Source: Bacillota bacterium (GTDB lineage Bacteria; Bacillota; Sulfobacillia; Sulfobacillales; Sulfobacillaceae). Taken from it: DNA of 60,514 bases. The stretch is from positions 1 through 60,514 of the forward strand of contig JAJYHT010000070.1 of assembly GCA_021784595.1 (NCBI GenBank), written 5' to 3'. The position numbers and the translations under genes are program-made. Positions within the stretch are counted from its first letter, which is position 1; each line of letters opens with the position of its first letter. A model generated the notes under the pieces. The model was not told where the DNA came from, ran no database searches, and was given only the letters and a program-made list of their open reading frames with translations. Below, piece by piece: positions 717-19,930 of the stretch.

Positions 717-1183
717 ATCGCTCCATTCTGTCGATGATAACAAGAAGGACGCTGCCCGTTGCCGGTAGCGTCTCCTATGATGCCAACTCGGGGTGTACAA
801 GCTATATTGTTCTATAGTGCCATAACGGTATCCCCATAAACGACAACTTAACACAATTAAAAATTATAATGCCTCGATTTAAGAATTTGCTAAGAATATG
901 ACATAAAACGACATATTGACATGCATGGCATTTTTACATGGACCGCTTGCGATATCCCAGATACTCCACGAATACGCCTGGCACACAGCAATTTTTCCCA
1001 AGTTCTGGACACTTGATGAGAAAGCTCAGTGCCAGACTGTGTGTGTCGAGGCTCTATGGCTCCTTTGGTGCGGTAAAGACGAAATCCGGTCTTCTCGGAC
1101 TAGACCTAGAAACAGCCGAAAGGTTGCTCGCCGTCACAAACTACTCCATAATTCAAGGAGATTCGACACCTCGGGGGTTATGG
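717..1183. other. Intergenic region between lipoprotein gene and Wadjet operon
   Basis: The middle part (about 840-935) is AT-rich and should hold the divergent promoters, but no -35/-10 pair is convincing. TATAAT at 865-870 lacks a good -35, and TTGACA at 916-921 lacks a good -10. From 938 the jetA frame is open upstream of the chosen start, but that stretch does not look like JetA sequence. Confidence 0.5.
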
Positions 1184-2641
1184 ATGAACACTTTATTTGA
1201 TATTGTACCGGAAACCTTTTTCTCCTTGTTAGCGGCTCCCAACCGACGCCTGTATGCCCGGGCGCTGATGGTGGTGCGCGACTGTTATCGCCGTGAAATG
1301 AAGTTTGTGCGGTCGGATTTGGTTTCCTACTTTCTCAATGACTTGCAGCCTGACTTGCTTCAACAGGTGGAACAGGAGGATGATGCGGGCGAGCTGAGGA
1401 ATTTATCGGACCGCGCTCACTTGCTAGTCCGCCGGCTGATTGAGACTGGATGGCTGGTCACCGACGTGGATGATCAGACACTGGAAGAGACCATCCTGAT
1501 ACCGGACTATGCCGCTCAAGTCTTAGCCACCCTCTACCAAATCGAAAATCCCTCGGCACCGACGTACAATACGTCTGTCTATGCGGCATACTCCGCACTC
1601 AGAACAGCCGATGCCGAACGCAATGAACTGGTCGCACAAGGACTTGAAGCGGCACAGGGACATATTGAAAGTCTGCAGGACAACCTTCGCATGTTAATGC
1701 ATAACCTGCGGCAATTTTATAAAGATGTTCACCAATTCACCGAGGTGCCCCAGGTGCTTACCCAGCATTTCGACCAATATCTAGAGGAATTGGGCACCAA
1801 AATCTATCATCCGTTAAAGACGAGTGACAGCTTTTACCGGTTTCAGGCGCCAATGCGGGCCATTTTGCAAAACTGGCTGCGAGATCTTGGCATGCAGGAG
1901 TTGTTGGTGCAATCGGTTCAGCGGCATGACCAGTCGCAGACGCCAGAATCAGCGCGCAGCGAGGTATTGAGCCGTCTCTACGGACTCTCTGAAAACCTGG
2001 AGCAAGTGGACCGCTTCCTGCAAGAAATCGATCGCCGCAACGCCGCCTACACCCGTTCGGCCACGGCCCGGGTGCGCTACTTGCTCAATACCAATCGCGA
2101 TATTAAAGGCGAATTGATTGAGTTGATGAAAGCCTTGCCGGCATTAGGCGAGGAGGCTTCCGAGGATTTTGACGATGTCTTGGATATCGCCGTAACCCGG
2201 GTCCGCTACGCCGATCCGGAGCGCCTCTATCGCGAACCCCGGTCACGTCAAGAAAAGGCGAGTCAGCCGCTCTCAAAACGTCATCCGCTGGCGGATCAGG
2301 CGTTGGCCAAAGAGGTCTTCGAACTCATGCAGCAGCGCCAGAGCCTTTATGCGGACCAAGCTCTGGTACGCTTTTTGGACAGCCAGCGCCCGGCCGGCTC
2401 GGATCGGGTCGGTGCCTCTGAGCTTAATTTGGGTAGTGTGGAAGACTTTTTGCGCACCCTGTTGGCCACGGTGAAAAGCGACGAACTGGAGTTTTTGTAC
2501 CAGGTGCAAGGTCCCGACGGAACCGCCGGGGTTCAGCGGGGTCAGTACCGGATTCCAGACATGACCTTTATCCTTAAAGATCCCACTCGAACGTCGGTCG
2601 ATGACGAGGGAAAGCAGGTCGCCGTTAATGGAGTGGAGTAA
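1184..2641 (+). CDS. jetA: Wadjet protein JetA (kleisin-like subunit)
   Basis: First gene of a JetABCD (Wadjet) operon. JetA is the MukF/kleisin-like subunit that bridges the JetC SMC ATPase heads and recruits JetB; the complex extrudes DNA loops and senses small circular DNA. About 485 residues. The start is placed at the ATG giving MNTLFDIVPETFFSLL, because JetA proteins I recall begin with LFD-x-x-PE-x-FFSLL. The open frame reaches back to 938, but those 82 codons are unlike the family; GGGGG sits six bases before the chosen ATG. The middle is helical and rich in Gln, Glu and Leu. The stop overlaps the start of jetB. The N-terminal motif suggests the type III-like branch; an HMM search would settle this. 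Confidence 0.85.
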   Translation: MNTLFDIVPETFFSLLAAPNRRLYARALMVVRDCYRREMKFVRSDLVSYFLNDLQPDLLQQVEQEDDAGELRNLSDRAHLLVRRLIETGWLVTDVDDQTLEETILIPDYAAQVLATLYQIENPSAPTYNTSVYAAYSALRTADAERNELVAQGLEAAQGHIESLQDNLRMLMHNLRQFYKDVHQFTEVPQVLTQHFDQYLEELGTKIYHPLKTSDSFYRFQAPMRAILQNWLRDLGMQELLVQSVQRHDQSQTPESARSEVLSRLYGLSENLEQVDRFLQEIDRRNAAYTRSATARVRYLLNTNRDIKGELIELMKALPALGEEASEDFDDVLDIAVTRVRYADPERLYREPRSRQEKASQPLSKRHPLADQALAKEVFELMQQRQSLYADQALVRFLDSQRPAGSDRVGASELNLGSVEDFLRTLLATVKSDELEFLYQVQGPDGTAGVQRGQYRIPDMTFILKDPTRTSVDDEGKQVAVNGVE

Positions 2642-3257
2642 AACTTGCCAGGACATGCGTGAAGACGATAGCGAACGATTTTCAGACATTGTGAGTCAGC
2701 TGTTTGACCGGACCTTTATCGTTCGCGAACTTTGGGACGCGCGAGCGCAGCGGATGGTGGCCAACCCCTCTTATCGTTTTGTGACACGATTTTTAGAGTG
2801 TCTCAGAACCTATCTGGACTTTGGGGGATTTGATCTTCAAGTCGATAACGACTTAGGTGTGGTCGCGCTATACAGCCGCTACGGGCGTAATCGGGAACCG
2901 CTGGACAAGGTCACGACCTATTTTCTCATGGCGCTCCGACTGTTATTTATTGAAAAAATGGAACAGGCCAAAATGCGCCAAGAACCCTTGGTGGCACTTT
3001 CTGAGGTATTTAACCGATTGCGGGTGTTGGATTTGACCATGGGCAAATTGCCAGTTAAAGCGGTGGAGAAAACCCTGGCGTCATTGCGCCGCCTTTCCAT
3101 TATCGAACTGGTGGATGGTGATGCCAGTGATCCGGAATCGCGCTGGCTAATCTATCCCAGCATTCGGATATTAGTCCCCGATGAGCGCATTCACGATGCA
3201 TTGGCAAGGATTCAGTCGCTTGAGGCTGCCGGCGCAGGGGAGGAGGAAGATCTGTGA
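2628..3257 (+). CDS. jetB: Wadjet protein JetB (MukE-like subunit)
   Basis: About 209 residues, the usual JetB size. JetB is the MukE/KITE-like winged-helix subunit that binds the JetA kleisin. Visible features are a helical N-terminus with FDRTFIVREL, a central stretch DKVTTYFLMALRLLF, and a C-terminal winged-helix-like segment ending in an acidic tail. The identification rests mainly on position, size and the unmistakable neighbours jetA and jetC. The start is uncertain: ATG at 2628 is preferred, with alternatives at 2601 and 2655 and no strong SD at any of them. The gene overlaps jetA by 14 bases, and its TGA is embedded in the GTGA that starts jetC, so translation is probably coupled. Confidence 0.8.
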   Translation: MEWSKTCQDMREDDSERFSDIVSQLFDRTFIVRELWDARAQRMVANPSYRFVTRFLECLRTYLDFGGFDLQVDNDLGVVALYSRYGRNREPLDKVTTYFLMALRLLFIEKMEQAKMRQEPLVALSEVFNRLRVLDLTMGKLPVKAVEKTLASLRRLSIIELVDGDASDPESRWLIYPSIRILVPDERIHDALARIQSLEAAGAGEEEDL

Positions 3258-6200
3258 AGACGCTGAATCGACTGCTCCTGATCAATTGGCACTATATCGT
3301 GCACGAGGTGCTGGAGTTTGCCCCGGTGACCTTTCTCACCGGGAAGAACGGATCCGGTAAATCCACCATTGTGGATGCCTTGCAAGTACTGATTCTGGGA
3401 GAAACCCAAGGCGCTTTTTTTAACAAGGCTGCCAACAACAGTGTGCGTACGGTCAAGGGATATCTGCGCGGTGAAGTGGCCGAAGACGAGGTGGGAGAGG
3501 CCGTAGCCCTACGAAATGGACCATTTTCCAGCTACATTGTGGGGGAGTTTTACGACCGTCCGCATCGAAAGACATTTTGTTTTGGGGTGGTCTTCGATGT
3601 GGCCAGTGACGGGACCTATCAGCATCGCTTTTTTAAGCTGGACGACGCGTTGCCCGACCATCACTTTATCGAGAACGACGTCCCGTTGAATATCAACGGG
3701 CTGACGCGGTGGCGCAACAACCGGGTGGAAATCTATTCCACCCACAGCAAGTACCAAGATGTGTTCCGGGGCAACATGGGCAATTTGCACAGGAAATTTT
3801 ACCAGTTGTTTCGGCGCGCGGTGCCATTTTCCCCCATGACCGACGTGGCACGCTTCATTTCGGAATTTGTCTGCGATGTCCAACACGAAGTGGATATTGA
3901 AGATATGCGGCAAAATATCCACCATTATCAAGATCTTGAGGAAGACCTGCTGCGTGTGAAGAGCGAAATTGCCGCGCTGGACGAGATCCGCTCGGCAAAT
4001 CAGGGACTAGAGCGCATAGCGCAGCGGCTGGCTGTGTATCAATATCTGACTGCCCGGGCCGAAGTGGACCAGGATCAGGATCGCGTGGCGCACGTCGAGG
4101 GTCAGATCACCCACCTGCAAGCAGAGCAAGAGCGTCTGGCTGCCCAATTGGAAGAGCTTGCAGGACAACAAGTGGAGCTGCACAGTCGCCGGGATCGCTT
4201 AGTTGCGCAAAAGACCAATTCAGGAGTTTTTATCCGTCAACAGGCTTTGGAACATGACCGTCAGTTGGGCGAACAGCAGTGGCGGCAGTTGGTCTACCAA
4301 AGCGACACTCAATCAAAGATCTTGCGCCGTTATCGCGATGCCTGGTGGGCTGCCGGACAAGCACTGTCTGCCATCGAGGATTGGTCGGGACTGGATGAGA
4401 TGGACGGCGCCAGCCGTGCCGTTTCACTCGTGAAAGAGGGCTGGCGAAAGGCCAGTGAAGGACTCATGACTTGGCCGAAATCGTCTGCGCTTCCCCATCG
4501 TCTGTCCGAGGTCGGAGATGGGCCCATTAAATCGGGGCTGTCAAGAGATCAGCTTCAGCAAGCCGTGCAGAGCTGGAGCGCCGCCCACGAGGACTTCAGT
4601 AAGGCACAGCATGTGTTGCACGGGGAGATGGAGGCCAAGACCCTTGATGAGGCGGACCTGACGCAAAGGATTGCCAATTTGCAACAGGGCATTAAGTCAT
4701 GGCCGGCCAATACCCTCAAATTGCGTGCTGTCTTGCAGAATGAACTCAAACGATTGGTCGGGCAGCCGGTGAATGTTGACATTTTTGCCGACGTGCTCGA
4801 GGTGCGAGACGACCAGTGGCAAAACGCCATTGAAGGATATCTCCATACCCAACGCTTCAATCTGCTTGTGGCTCCCGAATACTTTCCCCAGGCTCTGAGC
4901 ATCTACGACCGGGTAAAACAGGGCCAGCACATCTTTGACGTAGGCCTGGTCGACATTGGACGCATTGCCGAACAGAATCCCGCCGCGCAGCCAGGGTCTT
5001 TAGCGGAAGAAATTGTCACCGATAATCGGTACGCCGAGCTTTATGCGAAATATTTGCTGGGTCGGGTGATCAAATGCGCCCAGGTTGGCGATTTGCGCCA
5101 ACACCGGGTGGCCGTCACACCTGACGGGATGTTATACCAGGGCTATGTGGTGCGCCAAATGGATCCCAAGCGTTGGGAAAGTCTTTTCATCGGGCAACGG
5201 GCTTTGGATCAGTCATTGCAGCAAGCACACACCGCATTGGAGCGTGTTCAGCAATGGCTGGCAGTTTGGCAGCCCCGGAACCGTCAGGTAGGAGCATGGA
5301 AAGCGACGCCGGTTCCCGCTATTACAGAGGTGGAGACGATTGGCGATATCGCCCAACAGATTGACGATGAAGCCGAAAGCGTGGCCGCCCGCGTGCGCGA
5401 CGCGGTTCGTGAGCTGAGTCTGTTGGATCTCAGGGAAGTCATGGAAATTGGCCGTCGCATCCAGGTCCTCGATGAGGATTTGAAACGCAATGGAAGCCAA
5501 CGCGACCAAGTCGCTGCAGAACGCGGAGCCGGCGATAATCAGCTGCGGCATTTGCTCCAGGTTGGGCGGCCAGAAGCTCAAGCCCAGTGGGAGACGCACC
5601 AGGAACTTTTGCACAGCCAGTATCAGCCACAGTTTCGGCAAGACATTGGGGAGCCCCGGTATCAAAAAGAATTGGCGCGGCTAGGGTCGGCGGAGAGGGT
5701 GCGGGTTAACTTCGGCAAGGAATTGCTAAAACAAAGCACTCAGCGGGATGATGCCTGGAATGCCCTGATTACCCTGCGGGAAGCCTATAATCTTCAGTTT
5801 AGGGCAGGTCTGGATGTTCATGCAAAAAGCAATCACGAATACGACACTGCCTGGCAGCGGCTGATAAGCTCACAATTGCCGGAGTATGAGGAGAAAATCG
5901 AAGCGGCTCGGCTGCGGGCCCAACAGCAATTTCAAGAAGATTTTGTGGCCAAACTGCGCAACAACATTGAGACCGCGCGCAAGCAGATTGACGACTTGAA
6001 TGACGCTTTGAAAGATATTCGGTGGGGCTCTGACCGTTACCGTTTTCAAGTGGTGCCCAATCGGCATTACCAGAAGTTTTACGACATGATTATGGATGAT
6101 CTGTTACTGCAAGGATATAGCCTTTTCTCCCAGTCGTTTTTAGACCGGCATCAGGATACGGTCAATGAGTTATTTCGCGCTATCGTGACCCGAGATGACA

Positions 6201-6658
6201 ATGATGCCAATCGGCAAGCCCTGTTGGAGCAGAACCTGCATCAGTTTACCGATTACCGGACTTACTTGGATTTCGACCTGGTGGTCAAAGATAGCGAAGG
6301 GCGGGAGTCCCGGCTGTCTCGCGTGATGGCGAAGAAGTCTGGGGGTGAAACCCAGACCCCGTTTTACATTTCGGTCTTGGCGTCTTTTGTTCAGGTGTAC
6401 CGCATTAACCAGGCCGGTTATAACAACACGCTGCGGTTGATTGTCTTCGATGAAGCGTATAGCAAGATGGATCAGCAGCGCATTCGGGAAAGCATCCGCA
6501 TCATTCGGCGTTTGGGCTTGCAAGCCATTTTGGCGGCTCCGTCCGATAAAGTGGCCGATATTAGCCCCTTGGTGGACCGCACCTTATTAGTCGCGCGGGC
6601 GCATGATGTGACCAAAGTTTTCAGCCCGTTTGAGGTGGAGGGCGCGGGGCAGTCATGA
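3254..6658 (+). CDS. jetC: Wadjet protein JetC (SMC/MukB-like ATPase)
   Basis: 1134-residue SMC-type ATPase, the motor of the Wadjet loop-extrusion complex. Walker A is GKNGSGKST near residues 29-37. A long heptad-rich, Gln/Glu/Arg-rich coiled coil fills roughly residues 230-900, interrupted near 480-650 by a globular hinge-like region. The ABC signature KKSGGETQ lies near residue 1025 and Walker B LIVFDEA near 1061. The GTG start at 3254 has an ideal SD (AGGAGGAAG) and overlaps the jetB stop as GTGA; its own stop overlaps jetD as ATGA. All ATPase motifs are intact, so the protein should be active. Confidence 0.93.
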   Translation: MKTLNRLLLINWHYIVHEVLEFAPVTFLTGKNGSGKSTIVDALQVLILGETQGAFFNKAANNSVRTVKGYLRGEVAEDEVGEAVALRNGPFSSYIVGEFYDRPHRKTFCFGVVFDVASDGTYQHRFFKLDDALPDHHFIENDVPLNINGLTRWRNNRVEIYSTHSKYQDVFRGNMGNLHRKFYQLFRRAVPFSPMTDVARFISEFVCDVQHEVDIEDMRQNIHHYQDLEEDLLRVKSEIAALDEIRSANQGLERIAQRLAVYQYLTARAEVDQDQDRVAHVEGQITHLQAEQERLAAQLEELAGQQVELHSRRDRLVAQKTNSGVFIRQQALEHDRQLGEQQWRQLVYQSDTQSKILRRYRDAWWAAGQALSAIEDWSGLDEMDGASRAVSLVKEGWRKASEGLMTWPKSSALPHRLSEVGDGPIKSGLSRDQLQQAVQSWSAAHEDFSKAQHVLHGEMEAKTLDEADLTQRIANLQQGIKSWPANTLKLRAVLQNELKRLVGQPVNVDIFADVLEVRDDQWQNAIEGYLHTQRFNLLVAPEYFPQALSIYDRVKQGQHIFDVGLVDIGRIAEQNPAAQPGSLAEEIVTDNRYAELYAKYLLGRVIKCAQVGDLRQHRVAVTPDGMLYQGYVVRQMDPKRWESLFIGQRALDQSLQQAHTALERVQQWLAVWQPRNRQVGAWKATPVPAITEVETIGDIAQQIDDEAESVAARVRDAVRELSLLDLREVMEIGRRIQVLDEDLKRNGSQRDQVAAERGAGDNQLRHLLQVGRPEAQAQWETHQELLHSQYQPQFRQDIGEPRYQKELARLGSAERVRVNFGKELLKQSTQRDDAWNALITLREAYNLQFRAGLDVHAKSNHEYDTAWQRLISSQLPEYEEKIEAARLRAQQQFQEDFVAKLRNNIETARKQIDDLNDALKDIRWGSDRYRFQVVPNRHYQKFYDMIMDDLLLQGYSLFSQSFLDRHQDTVNELFRAIVTRDDNDANRQALLEQNLHQFTDYRTYLDFDLVVKDSEGRESRLSRVMAKKSGGETQTPFYISVLASFVQVYRINQAGYNNTLRLIVFDEAYSKMDQQRIRESIRIIRRLGLQAILAAPSDKVADISPLVDRTLLVARAHDVTKVFSPFEVEGAGQS

Positions 6659-7926
6659 GTCAGAGCCCATGGGCGGAGCAGATATTGAATGTTTTGTTGG
6701 ACCGCTTTGAGGGGAGTGAAGCGCACGTGCGGGGTACACCATCTAATCGGCGCCCGCAGGTGAGCCTTGAGGACAAAATCCTGCCTGGCTATCAAAGCGG
6801 TGACGCGGACCCTGAGGTGAGGCGCAGGTTTCATCAGACCTTGGAAGAATGGCAGCGCCTAGGTTTAGTGGAACTGAAGTGGATGCGGCACGAAGAAGGC
6901 AATATTTTAGAAAAGGTCTATCTGGAATGGCAGGGCTTGGACCAAGTTTACGCCATGTGTGGTCGCCAGCCATTATCGCAGCGGGCTGACGCGCTGAGAG
7001 AAGAACTTAATGCTTGGGCATCTCGCCTGGCGCTGCCGTGGATGCAGGAATGGCTATGGGATGTGCGCCGATATGTTGAGGAAAAGCGGGCTATCCCCAC
7101 GGCCCTCATCCCGGAAGATCCAGACAAACGAGCGGCTCTGCTGCGGTCGTTAGCTGGGATTGCCGACAAGGGCGAGGAAGAGATGCCGCGTCGGGTTTTC
7201 TCCAGCCGATATCTCGCGCATAGCAAGGAATTTGAGACGGTGGTGGAAAGGCGCCTCTTAGGTCTTCGGCGGCGCTATGGCAAAGGTCATGAATCGATCG
7301 AAGACCTAGACGATGAGGCGCTCTTAAATCAGTTGGGGATTACGTTGGGGGAAGGCAGGATCTCATTGGCAGGTCCACTCACGTTTTCCCTAAACGGCAG
7401 CCCTTCGATAAACGTAGAGTGGTTTCCCCACGGTCTGGCGATGGGATCCTCGGATGTGGCGTTGCTGGACATTGCCGCCATGCCGGTCCGCCGGGTCTTA
7501 ACCATAGAAAACTTGACCTCATACCGGTGGTACTTGGATTTCGAAAAAACATCCGATGAACTGGTGCTGTTCTTAAATGGGTTTCCCAGCCATGGCATGC
7601 GCCGGCTGCTGCAAAATCTGTGGGCATTCAGTCAATCCATGACGCACCCGCCTTGTTTTGAGCATTGGGGCGATATCGATTTCGGCGGTCTGCAGATTTT
7701 AAATCAGTTGCGCCGCACCGTGACGAGGAGTTTCACTCCATGGAGAATGGACGCCGCATTGCTGCAACGTTTTGCCGATGACCGCATCCCGATTGCGGCC
7801 CATTATCGCCAACGTCTGACCAGCTTGCTTGCAGACCCTGAATTTCAGGATCTTTATCCGGTTATTGAAACCATCCTTCGGACTGGGGGAACATTGGAGC
7901 AAGAGGCATTAGCAGGGCGGCTATAA
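6655..7926 (+). CDS. jetD: Wadjet protein JetD (Toprim nuclease subunit)
   Basis: 423 residues. JetD is the topoisomerase VI-like nuclease that cuts circular plasmid DNA after JetABC has extruded it. The C-terminal Toprim-type domain is visible: an acidic VLTIENLTSYRWYL stretch near residue 285, and GDIDFGG near 340, the D-x-D-x-x-G motif that binds the catalytic metal. The N-terminal half is basic and helical, consistent with a winged-helix DNA-binding arm. The ATG start overlaps the jetC stop by ATGA. Having all four subunits intact, in canonical order and coupled by overlaps, argues for a functional defence system. Confidence 0.88.
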   Translation: MSQSPWAEQILNVLLDRFEGSEAHVRGTPSNRRPQVSLEDKILPGYQSGDADPEVRRRFHQTLEEWQRLGLVELKWMRHEEGNILEKVYLEWQGLDQVYAMCGRQPLSQRADALREELNAWASRLALPWMQEWLWDVRRYVEEKRAIPTALIPEDPDKRAALLRSLAGIADKGEEEMPRRVFSSRYLAHSKEFETVVERRLLGLRRRYGKGHESIEDLDDEALLNQLGITLGEGRISLAGPLTFSLNGSPSINVEWFPHGLAMGSSDVALLDIAAMPVRRVLTIENLTSYRWYLDFEKTSDELVLFLNGFPSHGMRRLLQNLWAFSQSMTHPPCFEHWGDIDFGGLQILNQLRRTVTRSFTPWRMDAALLQRFADDRIPIAAHYRQRLTSLLADPEFQDLYPVIETILRTGGTLEQEALAGRL

Positions 7927-8126
7927 GGGCAAGAACACTTGGACGTAAACGACAGTAGCGGTCCCAATGGGCGATGACGCAGTCTTTAGAAAGATAGCGG
8001 CAACATCAGAGGGGTAAATAGTTACCCTGATATGATTGCGTAATAGGTTAAGCATGGAGGAAGAAGAGTACGTGACATGCGCTAAACGAGGACCCGACAG
8101 ACCGAGGCCCTGGATGAGCACTGTGT

Positions 8127-8555
8127 TTACGGTTCATCGATGGTGATGTTCTCGTCACGGAGCCACTCGCGAACCCGTTCCAGGTTGCGCTCGTACTCGA
8201 ACTGGAACCATTGGTCACGTTCTTGGGGGAAGTCCAACAACACGTCCTTAAAACGGCGAAACGGTCTGGGGCCGCTTAGTGCTTGTTGCAACTTGAACTG
8301 CAACAATGTTGAGCTAACCCGGTATGAAAAATCCTGCATATCTCGATAGGCCAGACCCGATTCAATTTGGGGAATGCGAAGATAGGTCACTCCGAAGTTT
8401 GCTTCTATCTCGTTATGCAGTTCATCGTCATCCTCGAAAGCGTCGTTTAGTAGGACGATAGTGCCGTCATGGAGGTTGAGGAAGTACTGATGGTCAAAGA
8501 AGTTGTCCATATACGCATCAACCAGTTCCATGATGTTAAGCCCCGGTATGGTCAT
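8127..8555 (-). CDS. UPF0158 family protein
   Basis: 142 residues. The order of conserved blocks matches the uncharacterised UPF0158 family: a beta-hairpin with YFLNLHDGTIVLL, an acidic patch DDDELH, YLRIPQIES, AYRDMQDF, and the C-terminal signature FRRFKDVLLDFPQERDQWF followed by an Arg/Glu-rich helix. The family has no known enzymatic activity. The ATG at 8555 has an AGGGGGG SD about ten bases upstream. It lies convergent to the Wadjet operon, about 200 bases from jetD, with no sign of co-transcription. No catalytic residues are apparent; cytosolic by sequence. Confidence 0.85.
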   Translation of the reverse strand: MTIPGLNIMELVDAYMDNFFDHQYFLNLHDGTIVLLNDAFEDDDELHNEIEANFGVTYLRIPQIESGLAYRDMQDFSYRVSSTLLQFKLQQALSGPRPFRRFKDVLLDFPQERDQWFQFEYERNLERVREWLRDENITIDEP

Positions 8556-9123
8556 GTACAGATCCCCCCTAAGGTTCCACTACATTATTATATCTCGGTG
8601 GCAATATGCGCGAAATATAGCTGACCATGATTGAAACAGGTTTTTCGCTAGAGCGTGATGGTACTTATAGTGGATGAAGCAGTAAATGGTGTTTGCATTT
8701 TCTTTTGGGGTTTGGTTACTTTTACTAGCGCATTCTCCAAATCTCACCTGCGGTGAATGCGGTTGCTTGAATGGTCGTTGCCGGCGTGCTACAACGCGGC
8801 CATCCAAATCGTCTTTAGGGACTCCTCATAATCAAACCCGGGTCCTCCCTTGTAGCTGGTCCTGCTCGATTCCCCAAAAAGAAGGAAATCTTGCACAAAT
8901 AGCGAAATACTCAATTGGTTAAAAATAACAGTGGAACAGATTGGGTTACTTTTGGTAAAAAGTTGCGGCCAGGGCAAGTATGTAAAAATAATTTCCATGA
9001 TAAACAGAGATGGTTGTAAACCTTGATGGGGGCTACGCCACGTATTGGTCGACATCGGCGTGGACTTACGGCAATGAATTGATAAACATACAATGCAACC
9101 AAAGTAGAAGGAGGTGAAAGTTA
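8556..9123. other. Non-coding region before glycosyltransferase gene
   Basis: Short overlapping open frames here have no SD sites or recognisable domains. GGAGG at 9110-9114 serves the TTG start of the following gene. I see no RNA gene or mobile element. Confidence 0.4.
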
Positions 9124-14138: not shown

Positions 14139-16802
14139 ATGAATATGGACGGGCTAACAGGTCTTCATGTCATAGTGGGTCAGTTTTTCGATTCAGGTGC
14201 CTATCCTCCAGGCATTGGAGAATGCCCCGCCCGGTTGGGAAGGGTGGTGTTGGGCCCGCAAGGGTTTTTAGATCTGATGGAAACAAGGCTAGGATTGGTG
14301 GGCCCTCAAGTACCGGAAGCACTCCGCATTGGCCAATATTATCGCGCAGTGGTTGCTGTCGACGATAGTCACCGTTTCTATTCCCGGTCGTTCGCCTCCG
14401 ATGGGTGGACTACTGCACGAGAACTATTACGGTGGCGCGATAGCTTAGTTCTGGGTGGATGGTCGGGAAATCCATTGGTTGGCAGCCATCGCCTGGAGTC
14501 CATCAGTGCCCTTGAGAAAGCCGTGCGAGGACAATTATCGCAGGGCTTTTCTGATAGGTTTTCTGCGTTGCAAAAACGTCTGGGTGAGCGGCAGATTGAT
14601 TTAATAATTGAGCTGGTCGAGCCTTTGGCTGACTGGCCGCTCTGGTGGCAAACGCTGTTTAGCCGTTTGACGAAGAGTGGCGTTACGCTAGAAGTACGTG
14701 GCCGTCCTGCTACGCAGCTATCAGGAGATTTGGGCCGTGCCCAAAATCACTTGTTAGGTCGCACTTTTGCACCCTATGAGGAAGATGACACGCTAATCTT
14801 GGTGGACGGGGCCAATGAGTCGGAACTGGCGGAGGTGCTCACCGCATGGTTGGCGGCCGACCATTTAGAGAAGACGGTGGTCATTGCTGAGCGTCAATCC
14901 GAGCTTTTGGACCGTGTCCTCAAACGGTCCGGCTTGCCAGGCTTTGGCGTGACGGCGGCCGTGCCGTATCGCACCACCTTGGAAATCTTGCCTGCGGCCT
15001 GCGATACTTTTTGGCAGCCCTTCGATGCCCGATCATTGCTCAACTGGCTGAGCTTGCCCCAGTCACCCTTGCCTGGGCGGCTTCGCTATGCCCTGGCCCA
15101 TACCGTGGCTGAAGTTCCTGGTGTGGGTGGCAAAGCCTGGCATGAGGCGATCTCGCGGGCTCGCGGCCGCGAGTTGGCACGGCTAGACGAGAATGAAGCC
15201 GACAAGACCGTGCGGGATCGCCAGATGGCCCAATGGGATGATGATGTGCAGTTCTGGCTCCAGCATACGTATTATGACCCCATTGAGGGGATGCCTACTC
15301 CAGTGGCCCGCGCCATAGCGGGTCGGCTGCGTCAGTGGGCGGTCAAACGTAATGGGGCAATAGCGGACCCGTTGCTGGCTCTTTTGGGCCGATATGCCGG
15401 TGAATTAATGGACACCATGGAGGTTTCAGGATTGGAGTCCATCTCCAGAACTCAGTTAGATCGGATGTGGGACTCTGTGGTGGGTCCAGGCGGCACCCGT
15501 TTTGACGCATGCGAAGAAGCGTCTCCTTGGGGTTTGGTCAAGCATCCTGGGGCTATTTATCAAAACGTGGATACCGTGGTATGGTGGGGTTTTTACCAAA
15601 CCGATCGCCAGAGTAATCCGCGCACACCATGGAATGCGGAAGAAGAAAAAATTTTGCAAGAGGCTGGCATTATTGTCGAATCTCCCACCGAGATGGTGCT
15701 GCGAGAGGCCAAGGCATGGGCGCAACCCCTCTTCTGGGCTACGAAGCATGTACTGTTGCTTAGTGCTCATGAACCAGCCGGAAAAACCGCATCAGTTCAT
15801 CCGCTCTGGGATGAATTAAAGATAGGGAGTACGATGCCAAAGCGGGTAGCCGCGGCGGCATTGCTTCATAACGAGGAGAACTTTTTAGCCGGACGGCGAT
15901 TGCTAAGGTATGCATCGCAACCTTTAAGAATTCCCGACCGGGTCGCGCTGTGGCCACTCGGCCAGAGCGGGCTCAGACGCCGAACGGTGGAGTCGGCCAC
16001 TAGTATCGAGACGCTCCTCGGGTGCTCTCTGAGCTGGGTATTTCAGTATGGGGCGGGGCTTCGTCCCGCAGCCGCCTTGCAAGTTCCCCCAGAGCCTTTG
16101 ATGGTGGGCTCCTTGGTTCATGCCATTGTGCATGATCTGATTGGTGTTAAACCCGAGTGGGATCCCAAGGAAGCTGCCGAAGCGTCCTATAGGGTGTATG
16201 AGCGGTTAGTGCCGCAAATGGCCTCGCCCCTTTTGCAGCCAGAACGGCGCTTGGATTATGAGAAGTATCGCTTAAACATAACGCGTGCCATGTTGGCATT
16301 GTTCGAACTATTGCGTAAAGAGGGCCTTAGAGTGCCTTCATCAGAAGCCAGCGAATTTGCCGTAGAGCGTGCCTGGCAGGGAGAACAACGCATCCGTGGA
16401 ACTCTAGACCTCATTGCGGAAGATCCCAAGGGAGACAAAGTCATCCTGGATCTTAAGTGGTCCGCTGCCAAACGTTATCAAGACTTAGTAGACAACGGCA
16501 CCGCGGTACAGTTGGCTACCTATCAGTGGCTGTTGCAAGAACATCATACGGTATCACGAACCGGTTACTTTCTTCTAAAGAACGGGCAGGTAATCTGGAT
16601 GGCGGACAGTGAAGATGGGGCCAATGTGTGGCGCCGCACCCAAGATGCCTATCAAACGCAATTGTTCCAGCTTGAGGACCATGCCGTAGCCACCGGACTG
16701 CTGCGGGAAGAGGCTGTGGTCGATGGTGGAGGGTTTTCTATAGAGCCCCCCTGTACCTATTGCCAATATGGGACCTTATGCGGCATGAGGAGGATCCAAT
16801 GA
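14139..16802 (+). CDS. AddB-like PD-(D/E)XK nuclease with Fe-S cysteines
   Basis: 887 residues. The C-terminal third is a RecB-family nuclease: GSLVHAIVHDL, then GTLDLI near 753, ILDLKW near 768 and QLATYQ, which form the D...DxK...QxxxY core. Four cysteines fit the AddB/Cas4 iron-sulphur pattern: C629 in LLGCSLSW, and C872, C875 and C881 in CTYCQYGTLCG. The N-terminal two thirds lack a Walker A, as expected for the inactivated helicase-like part of AddB. It is shorter than typical AddB (about 1100 residues). The start has a good SD, and the stop overlaps the next gene as ATGA. Probably half of a DNA-end resection complex; a defence role is possible because of the context. Confidence 0.8.
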   Translation: MNMDGLTGLHVIVGQFFDSGAYPPGIGECPARLGRVVLGPQGFLDLMETRLGLVGPQVPEALRIGQYYRAVVAVDDSHRFYSRSFASDGWTTARELLRWRDSLVLGGWSGNPLVGSHRLESISALEKAVRGQLSQGFSDRFSALQKRLGERQIDLIIELVEPLADWPLWWQTLFSRLTKSGVTLEVRGRPATQLSGDLGRAQNHLLGRTFAPYEEDDTLILVDGANESELAEVLTAWLAADHLEKTVVIAERQSELLDRVLKRSGLPGFGVTAAVPYRTTLEILPAACDTFWQPFDARSLLNWLSLPQSPLPGRLRYALAHTVAEVPGVGGKAWHEAISRARGRELARLDENEADKTVRDRQMAQWDDDVQFWLQHTYYDPIEGMPTPVARAIAGRLRQWAVKRNGAIADPLLALLGRYAGELMDTMEVSGLESISRTQLDRMWDSVVGPGGTRFDACEEASPWGLVKHPGAIYQNVDTVVWWGFYQTDRQSNPRTPWNAEEEKILQEAGIIVESPTEMVLREAKAWAQPLFWATKHVLLLSAHEPAGKTASVHPLWDELKIGSTMPKRVAAAALLHNEENFLAGRRLLRYASQPLRIPDRVALWPLGQSGLRRRTVESATSIETLLGCSLSWVFQYGAGLRPAAALQVPPEPLMVGSLVHAIVHDLIGVKPEWDPKEAAEASYRVYERLVPQMASPLLQPERRLDYEKYRLNITRAMLALFELLRKEGLRVPSSEASEFAVERAWQGEQRIRGTLDLIAEDPKGDKVILDLKWSAAKRYQDLVDNGTAVQLATYQWLLQEHHTVSRTGYFLLKNGQVIWMADSEDGANVWRRTQDAYQTQLFQLEDHAVATGLLREEAVVDGGGFSIEPPCTYCQYGTLCGMRRIQ

Positions 16803-19800
16803 ATCTGGAAATCGTCAGCGCAGGGGCAGGTTCAGGCAAGACGTATGACTTGACGATGAAAGTTGCCCAAGCCATCCAAGAGGGCTTGGCGCCCGACCAC
16901 ATCATGGCCACCACATTTACGAATGTGGCGGCCGATGAGCTTTTGCATCGCGTGCGGGAGAAGCTTCTCTCAGTGGGGCGCCGTGATGCGGCCGAAGGCA
17001 TTTTGGGTGGGTTGGTAGGGACGATAAATAGCACAATGGGGAACTTGTTAACGCTTTTTTGCTGGAACGCGGGACTTCCACCGACGTTGCAGGTGGTCGA
17101 ACCTGACGATGCCAAAGTGCTTTTTCGGAGCGCTCTCGCCGCGGTACAAGACAACATCCTGACGGATCGCTTTAGGCAGGCGGTGGAACGACTAAGCCTT
17201 TCAGATGACTGGGAAGCGGCCGCCAAAAATATTGCCGACCAAGCCCGGACCAACGCCATCTCACCGGATGAGTTGCGCCATCACGCAGACCGCTCATGGG
17301 AGGCGTTACAGGGATACTTTTCCTCTAGTCCGATGAGTCGGGAGGAAAGCATCCATTGGGAGCGGCAAACCAAGATGGCGTTGGAAGCGGTTATCAATGG
17401 CCTTCATCGGCGGACCCTGACCCAGAAAAATGAAACCGATGGTCTTGGCACACTGGAGTCCATTGACCGAAAAGCCCGCTATCAAGGACATATCACATGG
17501 TGGGATTGGATGCGATTGGCCGGTGCTAATGCAGGAGCTAAAAACAAGGATTTGGTAGAGCCCTTAAAGAATTTGGCCAGCGCTGCTTTTCGCCATCCGC
17601 TGTTAGTGGACGATATGAAAGTAGCCATTAAGAGCATCTTCGAAATGGCGGCGGGAGCGTTGGAAATATTTCAAACCATGAAAAAGGATCGCGGACTAAT
17701 TGATTTTGTAGACCAAGAATCCATCCTTTATGGTCTCATGGAATACCCGGAAGTCAGATCAGAATTCAGTCGGAGAATCCACGCGCTATGGGTGGACGAA
17801 TTTCAAGATTGCAGTCCGCTACAACTGGCCCTTTTAACCGAGATTTCTTTGCTGATTAATCAGGCATCCTGGGTGGGGGATCCTAAACAAGCCATCTATG
17901 GCTTTCGGGGCGCCGATCCGGAACTGATGGACTGGGCAATCCGCGAACTGGGACACGGACAGTATAGAATTTTGGGTGACTCACATCGATCTCGGCCGGA
18001 ACTGGTGTCCTTGGTGAATGATCTTTTTACGCCGGTATTTCAAAGACAAGATATACCTCGTGACCGGGTCCAACTGCGCCCTCATCGCAAACGCATGGAA
18101 GAACTTTCCCCGCCTTTTGAACTGTGGCGCCTTCAAGCCAAACACCAAGGTCAACAGTACCGGGCCATTGCGTCGGGCATCAACGATATTCTAAACGACT
18201 CCTCACGATATCTGGTGGATGATCATGGTAGGTTGCGGCCCATTCGCGGGTCTGATATTGCTGTGCTCTGTCGCAAGAATGACAGTTGCACCGCTATCGC
18301 GGCGGCGCTGAGCCAATTTGGCATACGGGCCATCGTTGGTCGCGAAGGCTTGTTCGATGTACCAGAGACGCATCTGACATTGGCGGCCTTGCGCTACCTT
18401 TGGGACAAGGAAGATAGTCTGGCGGTGGCGGAGCTGCTTCACTTGGGATCACCGCTCGGAGAGGATAGAGAGTGGCTTTCGCAGTGGCTAGACCCTGAGT
18501 GCAAAGAACAATTGCTCCAGAATCCCCGCATCGTTGCCCTGAATCAGGCGCGGCAAAGCACGGAACTTACCTTGAGCGAACTGCTTGACCGCGCGATGGT
18601 TGCCATCGACATATTCGATGTGGTGGCGGGATGGGGGGAGAGCGACGTAAGACGGGGCAATTTGGAAAAGTTGCGAGGTTTGGCCCAAGGATTCGAAAGC
18701 CGGACCCAGGGCCTGGGCCTGGCGCCGACCGTGCCTGCGTTTTTAGGGTATATCGAGGATATTCGGTCCGATAAGAAGAATGATGGGAACAAACAGTCCA
18801 AAAGCCAGGATATTAAAGCTGTAAACGTGCTGACCTATCATGGGGCAAAGGGCTTGGAGTGGCCCATGGTGATTTTGACATTTCAATCGCGACCCCCGGA
18901 GGCGACGCCCTTTGAGGTGCGGGTGCTGTCGCCCATCGAGCGGACACTTAAGCGCCCACTCGATGGACGATGGATCCGTTACTGGCCATGGCCTTTTGGA
19001 CTAAAACGCCATGACGTAGGCCTCGATGCCACTATGGCTGGGGCACCCGCCATCATGGAAGCCGAGCAGAGGCTAGTGAGTGAGAACAGTCGTCTGCTCT
19101 ATGTGGGTATGACCCGGGCACGGGATTACCTGGTTTGGGCCTTTGCAGGGAAATCCGTCAAAGATTTAGATGTACTCAGTGATGGTGACGGAGTACCGGT
19201 GTTTCAATGGCCAACTTTAGGGGCCACGGAAATGGTTGTCGGAGGTGCGCGTCATTCGGTGGTTCAAAAGGACTTGGTGTATGAGGAAGTCGTCGGTCAA
19301 ACCCAAGACATGCCGTCAACGATCTGGGTGCTGCCAAAAAGCAAAGAGGCATGGAGCCGGGTTCCTCGTCATATCGCTCCTAGCCATTCGGTATCAGACA
19401 AAATCCATGGCAGCATCGAAGAAACGGTGGCGTTGGGAGACCGAATTCCTTTAGTAGGAACTACCGACATGGAGCGCTTGGGGTTAATGGTGCATGGCTT
19501 TATTGCGGCCGCACACAACACGCCCCAAGAACAGTGGCCCTCCCTGGCCCAAGAACTTATCGATCGCTGGGGCATTTCCTATTTTCAGCCCAGTTATCTC
19601 ATTGAAGCCAAGAGGAGGTATCAGCAATTCCTGCAAAGCCGATGGCCAGGATTTAAAGAACAAGTGGAGTGGCCAGTGCAAATGAAAGAGGGCAATCAAT
19701 TAGTGTCAGGGTGGATTGATAGTCTCTGGGAAGGTCCGCAAGGCTACATCATTGTCGACCATAAAACATTTCCCGGCAGGGAGGAGCAATGGGACCAAAA

Positions 19801-19930
19801 GGCGTTGGGATATGTTGGCCAGCTTGAGCGATATCACACCATGGTGACACAAGCTTCTAGCAAGCCGGTGTTGGAGATGTGGATACACTTTCCGGTGGTT
19901 AGCCGGATGTTGAGGATAGGGGTGATTTAA
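16799..19930 (+). CDS. AddA-like UvrD/RecB helicase-nuclease
   Basis: About 1043 residues with a full superfamily 1A helicase set: Walker A GAGSGKT (8-14), motif Ia FTNVAADEL, motif II DEFQD near 333, motif III GDPKQAIYGFRGAD near 360, motif IV DSHRSRPEL, motif V TYHGAKGLEW and motif VI LLYVGMTRA near 770. A C-terminal PD-(D/E)XK nuclease follows (GWIDSL, IVDHKT near 985, GQLERYH). That order is the AddA architecture. The ATG at 16799 overlaps the upstream stop and has GAGGAGG before it; the frame to 16760 is an unneeded extension. With its partner it should unwind and degrade DNA ends. Whether this is the housekeeping AddAB or an accessory copy cannot be told here. Confidence 0.87.
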   Translation: MNLEIVSAGAGSGKTYDLTMKVAQAIQEGLAPDHIMATTFTNVAADELLHRVREKLLSVGRRDAAEGILGGLVGTINSTMGNLLTLFCWNAGLPPTLQVVEPDDAKVLFRSALAAVQDNILTDRFRQAVERLSLSDDWEAAAKNIADQARTNAISPDELRHHADRSWEALQGYFSSSPMSREESIHWERQTKMALEAVINGLHRRTLTQKNETDGLGTLESIDRKARYQGHITWWDWMRLAGANAGAKNKDLVEPLKNLASAAFRHPLLVDDMKVAIKSIFEMAAGALEIFQTMKKDRGLIDFVDQESILYGLMEYPEVRSEFSRRIHALWVDEFQDCSPLQLALLTEISLLINQASWVGDPKQAIYGFRGADPELMDWAIRELGHGQYRILGDSHRSRPELVSLVNDLFTPVFQRQDIPRDRVQLRPHRKRMEELSPPFELWRLQAKHQGQQYRAIASGINDILNDSSRYLVDDHGRLRPIRGSDIAVLCRKNDSCTAIAAALSQFGIRAIVGREGLFDVPETHLTLAALRYLWDKEDSLAVAELLHLGSPLGEDREWLSQWLDPECKEQLLQNPRIVALNQARQSTELTLSELLDRAMVAIDIFDVVAGWGESDVRRGNLEKLRGLAQGFESRTQGLGLAPTVPAFLGYIEDIRSDKKNDGNKQSKSQDIKAVNVLTYHGAKGLEWPMVILTFQSRPPEATPFEVRVLSPIERTLKRPLDGRWIRYWPWPFGLKRHDVGLDATMAGAPAIMEAEQRLVSENSRLLYVGMTRARDYLVWAFAGKSVKDLDVLSDGDGVPVFQWPTLGATEMVVGGARHSVVQKDLVYEEVVGQTQDMPSTIWVLPKSKEAWSRVPRHIAPSHSVSDKIHGSIEETVALGDRIPLVGTTDMERLGLMVHGFIAAAHNTPQEQWPSLAQELIDRWGISYFQPSYLIEAKRRYQQFLQSRWPGFKEQVEWPVQMKEGNQLVSGWIDSLWEGPQGYIIVDHKTFPGREEQWDQKALGYVGQLERYHTMVTQASSKPVLEMWIHFPVVSRMLRIGVI

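What the first reader, a model, noticed from the sequence alone, without database searches (positions are those of the whole stretch)
1184..7926. Complete, translationally coupled Wadjet (JetABCD) plasmid-defence operon
All four subunits are present with intact ATPase and Toprim motifs. Three successive overlaps (jetA/jetB, GTGA, ATGA) imply stoichiometric synthesis. JetA begins with an LFD-PE-FFSLL motif that I associate with the less studied type III branch.
Basis: partly seen in the sequence, partly recalled or inferred. Interest (0 to 1): 0.65.

Follow-up and report, generated by a model that had tools for sequence, protein, structure and literature searches.

The report
Type I Wadjet plasmid-defence operon

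Summary
In detail: jetA-jetB-jetC-jetD run on the + strand at 1184-7926, all open, with SMC ATPase motifs in JetC and an intact E...DxD Toprim core in JetD. Every gene hits type I Jet models best, over nearly its full length. The type III suggestion is refuted: a JetA3 model finds nothing in this genome, and the LFD-x-PE-FFSLL start is the usual type I JetA N-terminus (27 of 30 type I match a strict pattern, 0 of 6 type III). Short overlaps are usual in type I operons and do not show stoichiometry. It is the only JetD locus in the genome. A 90.6% identical 7.7-kb segment lies in Sulfobacillus benefaciens with different flanks; other genus and family genomes searched lack a close relative. This suggests a horizontally moved cassette under purifying selection. 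In the S. benefaciens MAG, jetA has a 5-base frameshift. A UPF0158 gene travels with the cassette but not with Wadjet elsewhere. Verdict: an ordinary new member of Wadjet type I; plasmid cleavage is inferred from the family, not shown here.

The parts
1184..2641 (+). jetA, kleisin-like subunit (485 aa), N-terminus MNTLFDIVPETFFSLL
   Evidence: PDLC00449 JetA1 E=8e-132 over residues 3-466; PF18982 JetA 1e-94; start ATG shared with L009
2628..3257 (+). jetB, MukE-like KITE subunit; start uncertain (2601, 2628 or 2655)
   Evidence: PDLC00502 JetB1 6e-53; PF13835 DUF4194 1e-22; start codons
3254..6658 (+). jetC, SMC ATPase (1134 aa); GTG start in a GTGA overlap with jetB
   Evidence: PDLC00519 JetC1 E=0, residues 1-1120; SbcC_Walker_B 9e-26 and AAA_29 3e-16; Walker A, signature and Walker B conserved
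6655..7926 (+). jetD, Toprim nuclease (423 aa); ATGA overlap with jetC; E285, D340, D342
   Evidence: PDLC00533 JetD1 2e-111; PF09983 JetD_C 5e-22; E285 in all aligned sequences, D340-x-D342 in 19 of 20, the other (L088) being masked with N there
964..8681 (.). Segment shared with S. benefaciens AMDSBA4 (90.6% DNA identity); flanks not shared: probable mobile cassette
   Evidence: blastn against L009; only G000 and G004 of nine genomes searched hold it
8127..8555 (-). UPF0158-family gene inside the shared segment; likely passenger
   Evidence: PF03682 6e-15; shared with L009 at 85% aa identity; not beside jetA in other Wadjet I genomes searched

Best explanation
This is a complete Wadjet type I (JetABCD) operon in a Sulfobacillus-group bacterium. 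JetA (kleisin), JetB (KITE) and JetC (SMC ATPase) would form a dimeric DNA loop-extruding motor. JetD, a Toprim nuclease, would be switched on when the motor has fully extruded a small closed circle and would cut it. Shown here: gene content, order, subtype, intact catalytic residues, purifying selection, patchy distribution. Inferred from the family: complex formation, extrusion and plasmid cleavage.
For: Type I models for all four genes, near full length; matching Pfam families. Same gene order in 19 other type I operons taken from the phylum and class, JetD being detected in 18 of them. ATPase and Toprim residues conserved. dN/dS about 0.06 (first 398 codons of jetA), 0.12 (jetB), 0.19 (jetC) and 0.20 (jetD) against the S. 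benefaciens copy. One JetD locus in the genome. Mechanism from PMC10586767 and PMC12647877; a native clostridial Wadjet blocks plasmid transfer, PMC12287153.
Against: No functional data for this operon. The close relative's jetA is frameshifted in its MAG, so the system may be dispensable, or the MAG may hold an error. No sigma-70-like promoter above chance was found.
Confidence: 0.95

Rival explanations
1. Wadjet type III, as the first reader suggested from the JetA N-terminus.
Against: JetA3 model PDLC00562 has no match in the genome. All best hits are JetA1/B1/C1/D1. The motif occurs in type I and in none of six type III N-termini.
Confidence: 0.01
2. A housekeeping MukBEF/MksBEF condensin that organises the chromosome rather than cutting plasmids.
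For: JetB has a sub-threshold MksE match (22.7 bits against a cut-off of 27) and JetC a weak MukB one.
Against: JetD with intact E...DxD is present. A close JetD is missing from most relatives, unlike a housekeeping complex. Jet models score far higher.
Confidence: 0.02
3. A decaying, non-functional Wadjet cassette.
For: The S. benefaciens copy has a frameshift in jetA.
Against: The window copy is open throughout, keeps all catalytic residues, and dN/dS is well below 1 in all four genes.
Confidence: 0.05

Closest known systems
Wadjet type I (Bacillus cereus Q1, E. coli GF4-3 JetABCD)
   Same: Gene order, families and catalytic motifs; type I models hit best
   Different: Sequence is diverged: phmmer against solved structures finds only PA14 JetC, weakly
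S. benefaciens AMDSBA4 jetABCD (L009, PXYW01000033.1)
   Same: 90.6% DNA identity over 7.7 kb, including UPF0158
   Different: Different flanks; jetA frameshift in the MAG
Other type I operons of the same phylum (e.g. G130, G415)
   Same: Order and domains; JetC 42-43% identical
   Different: No UPF0158 gene beside them

Membership tests
Wadjet (any type) | Four genes: kleisin JetA, KITE JetB, SMC JetC, Toprim JetD | tested here: met
Wadjet type I | All four subunits match type I profiles best | tested here: met
   JetA1/B1/C1/D1 top hits, E from 6e-53 to 0
Wadjet type I | ATPase motifs in JetC and E...DxD Toprim core in JetD | tested here: met
   alignment A1
Wadjet type I | ATP-dependent cleavage of small circular plasmids | not testable with these tools
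   needs an experiment
Wadjet type III | JetA3-type JetA | tested here: not met
   no PDLC00562 match in G000; N-terminal motif is type I
MukBEF/MksBEF without nuclease | No JetD/MksG gene in the operon | tested here: not met
   JetD present at 6655-7926

The most novel reading that the evidence does not exclude
The UPF0158 gene carried in the same cassette is a lineage-specific accessory or regulator of this Wadjet system rather than a passenger.
Probability: 0.06. Interest if true: 0.35.

Novelty: new member of a known kind. Interest (0 to 1): 0.12.

Why it matters
It adds an intact type I Wadjet in acidophilic Sulfobacillus relatives and could be one reason why small plasmid vectors fail in such strains (inference). 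No paper in the searched open-access library holds both 'Sulfobacillus' and 'Wadjet'. It does not change the understanding of Wadjet.

Tried and rejected
Type III assignment: rejected. Defence island: of six neighbours at 9-22 kb tested against PADLOC, only a UvrD/AddA-like helicase gave hits (GajB models, through the helicase domain); it lies next to an AddB-like gene, so probably ordinary recombination genes. Empty site: the upstream lipoprotein gene occurs in relatives, but no relative was found to join both flanks, so no clean empty site was shown. Single-sequence AlphaFold of JetD gave mean pLDDT 41.5 and was not used. A viral-contig scan with the JetD alignment found no relative. Rolling-circle Rep family PF01719 was not found in the genome, but one family in a draft genome says little about plasmids. 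misread minus-strand loci and was replaced.

Full report
What is there. Four genes run on the + strand from 1184 to 7926. PADLOC models assign them to JetA1, JetB1, JetC1 and JetD1 over nearly their full lengths, with E-values of 8e-132, 6e-53, 0 and 2e-111. Pfam agrees: JetA (PF18982), DUF4194, SbcC_Walker_B with AAA_29, and JetD_C. JetC carries GKNGSGKST, KSGGETQ and FDEA; JetD carries E285 and D340-x-D342. These are conserved in the roughly 20 type I operons aligned (alignment A1).

Subtype. All best hits are type I. The JetA3 model PDLC00562 finds nothing in the genome, though it finds clear JetA3 genes elsewhere in the phylum. The LFD-x-PE-FFSLL start is the normal type I JetA N-terminus: 27 of 30 type I JetA match the pattern F..[IVFY]P..[LFIVM]F and the other three show a close variant by eye, while 0 of 6 type III JetA match.

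Coupling. jetB/jetC (GTGA) and jetC/jetD (ATGA) overlap by four bases. jetB's start is ambiguous, so the jetA/jetB junction may be a 41- or 14-base overlap or a 13-base gap. In other type I operons the same junctions range from overlaps to gaps of a few tens of bases, and in two of them jetB and jetC lie 0.6-2 kb apart. The overlaps fit translational coupling but do not show equal synthesis of the subunits.

Genomic setting. The window is a whole contig of a 3.8-Mb draft and begins 1.2 kb before jetA, so the upstream side is barely visible. There is one JetD locus in the genome. Among 60 relatives, a close JetD occurs only in G004 (90% identity); the other three genus members (two of them incomplete drafts) and 29 family members have none, apart from one marginal hit. 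G004's contig has the same length as PXYW01000033.1 of Sulfobacillus benefaciens AMDSBA4, where the named relative was found, which is the basis for calling the host Sulfobacillus-group. The shared segment is 964-8681 at 90.6% DNA identity, with unrelated sequence on both sides. In G004 the upstream lipoprotein gene lies about 15 kb beyond the cassette on the same contig. This fits movement as a cassette, but no empty site was shown.

Selection. Against the S. benefaciens copy, dN/dS is about 0.06 for the first 398 codons of jetA, 0.12 for jetB, 0.19 for jetC, 0.20 for jetD and 0.39 for UPF0158 (NG86). The S. benefaciens jetA has a 5-base deletion near window position 2394 that breaks the frame; it is a MAG, so an assembly error is possible.

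Mechanism. From published work on type I Wadjet, JetABC extrudes DNA, and JetD cuts once a small circle has been fully extruded (PMC10586767; PMC12647877). A native clostridial Wadjet was shown to block plasmid transfer (PMC12287153). For this operon these steps are inferred.

Conclusion. This is an ordinary, intact member of Wadjet type I. JetC relatives of 42-43% identity occur elsewhere in the phylum, and 53 of 398 phylum genomes have a JetA over the Pfam cut-off. Interest is low.

Noticed in passing
window 8127-8555 (-): UPF0158-family gene conserved with the Wadjet cassette in two Sulfobacillus-group genomes but not near Wadjet elsewhere.
   Followed up: partly
L009 about 5755 (window about 2394): A 5-base deletion breaks jetA in the S. 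benefaciens AMDSBA4 MAG.
   Followed up: partly
L009 13877-14041 versus window 8867-8910 and 8065-8128: Short pieces of the cassette's downstream region match about 2 kb further on in S. benefaciens, suggesting rearrangement at this edge.
   Followed up: partly
window 14139-19930: Probable AddB/AddA-like helicase-nuclease pair; the second protein hits GajB models through its UvrD-type helicase domain.
   Followed up: partly
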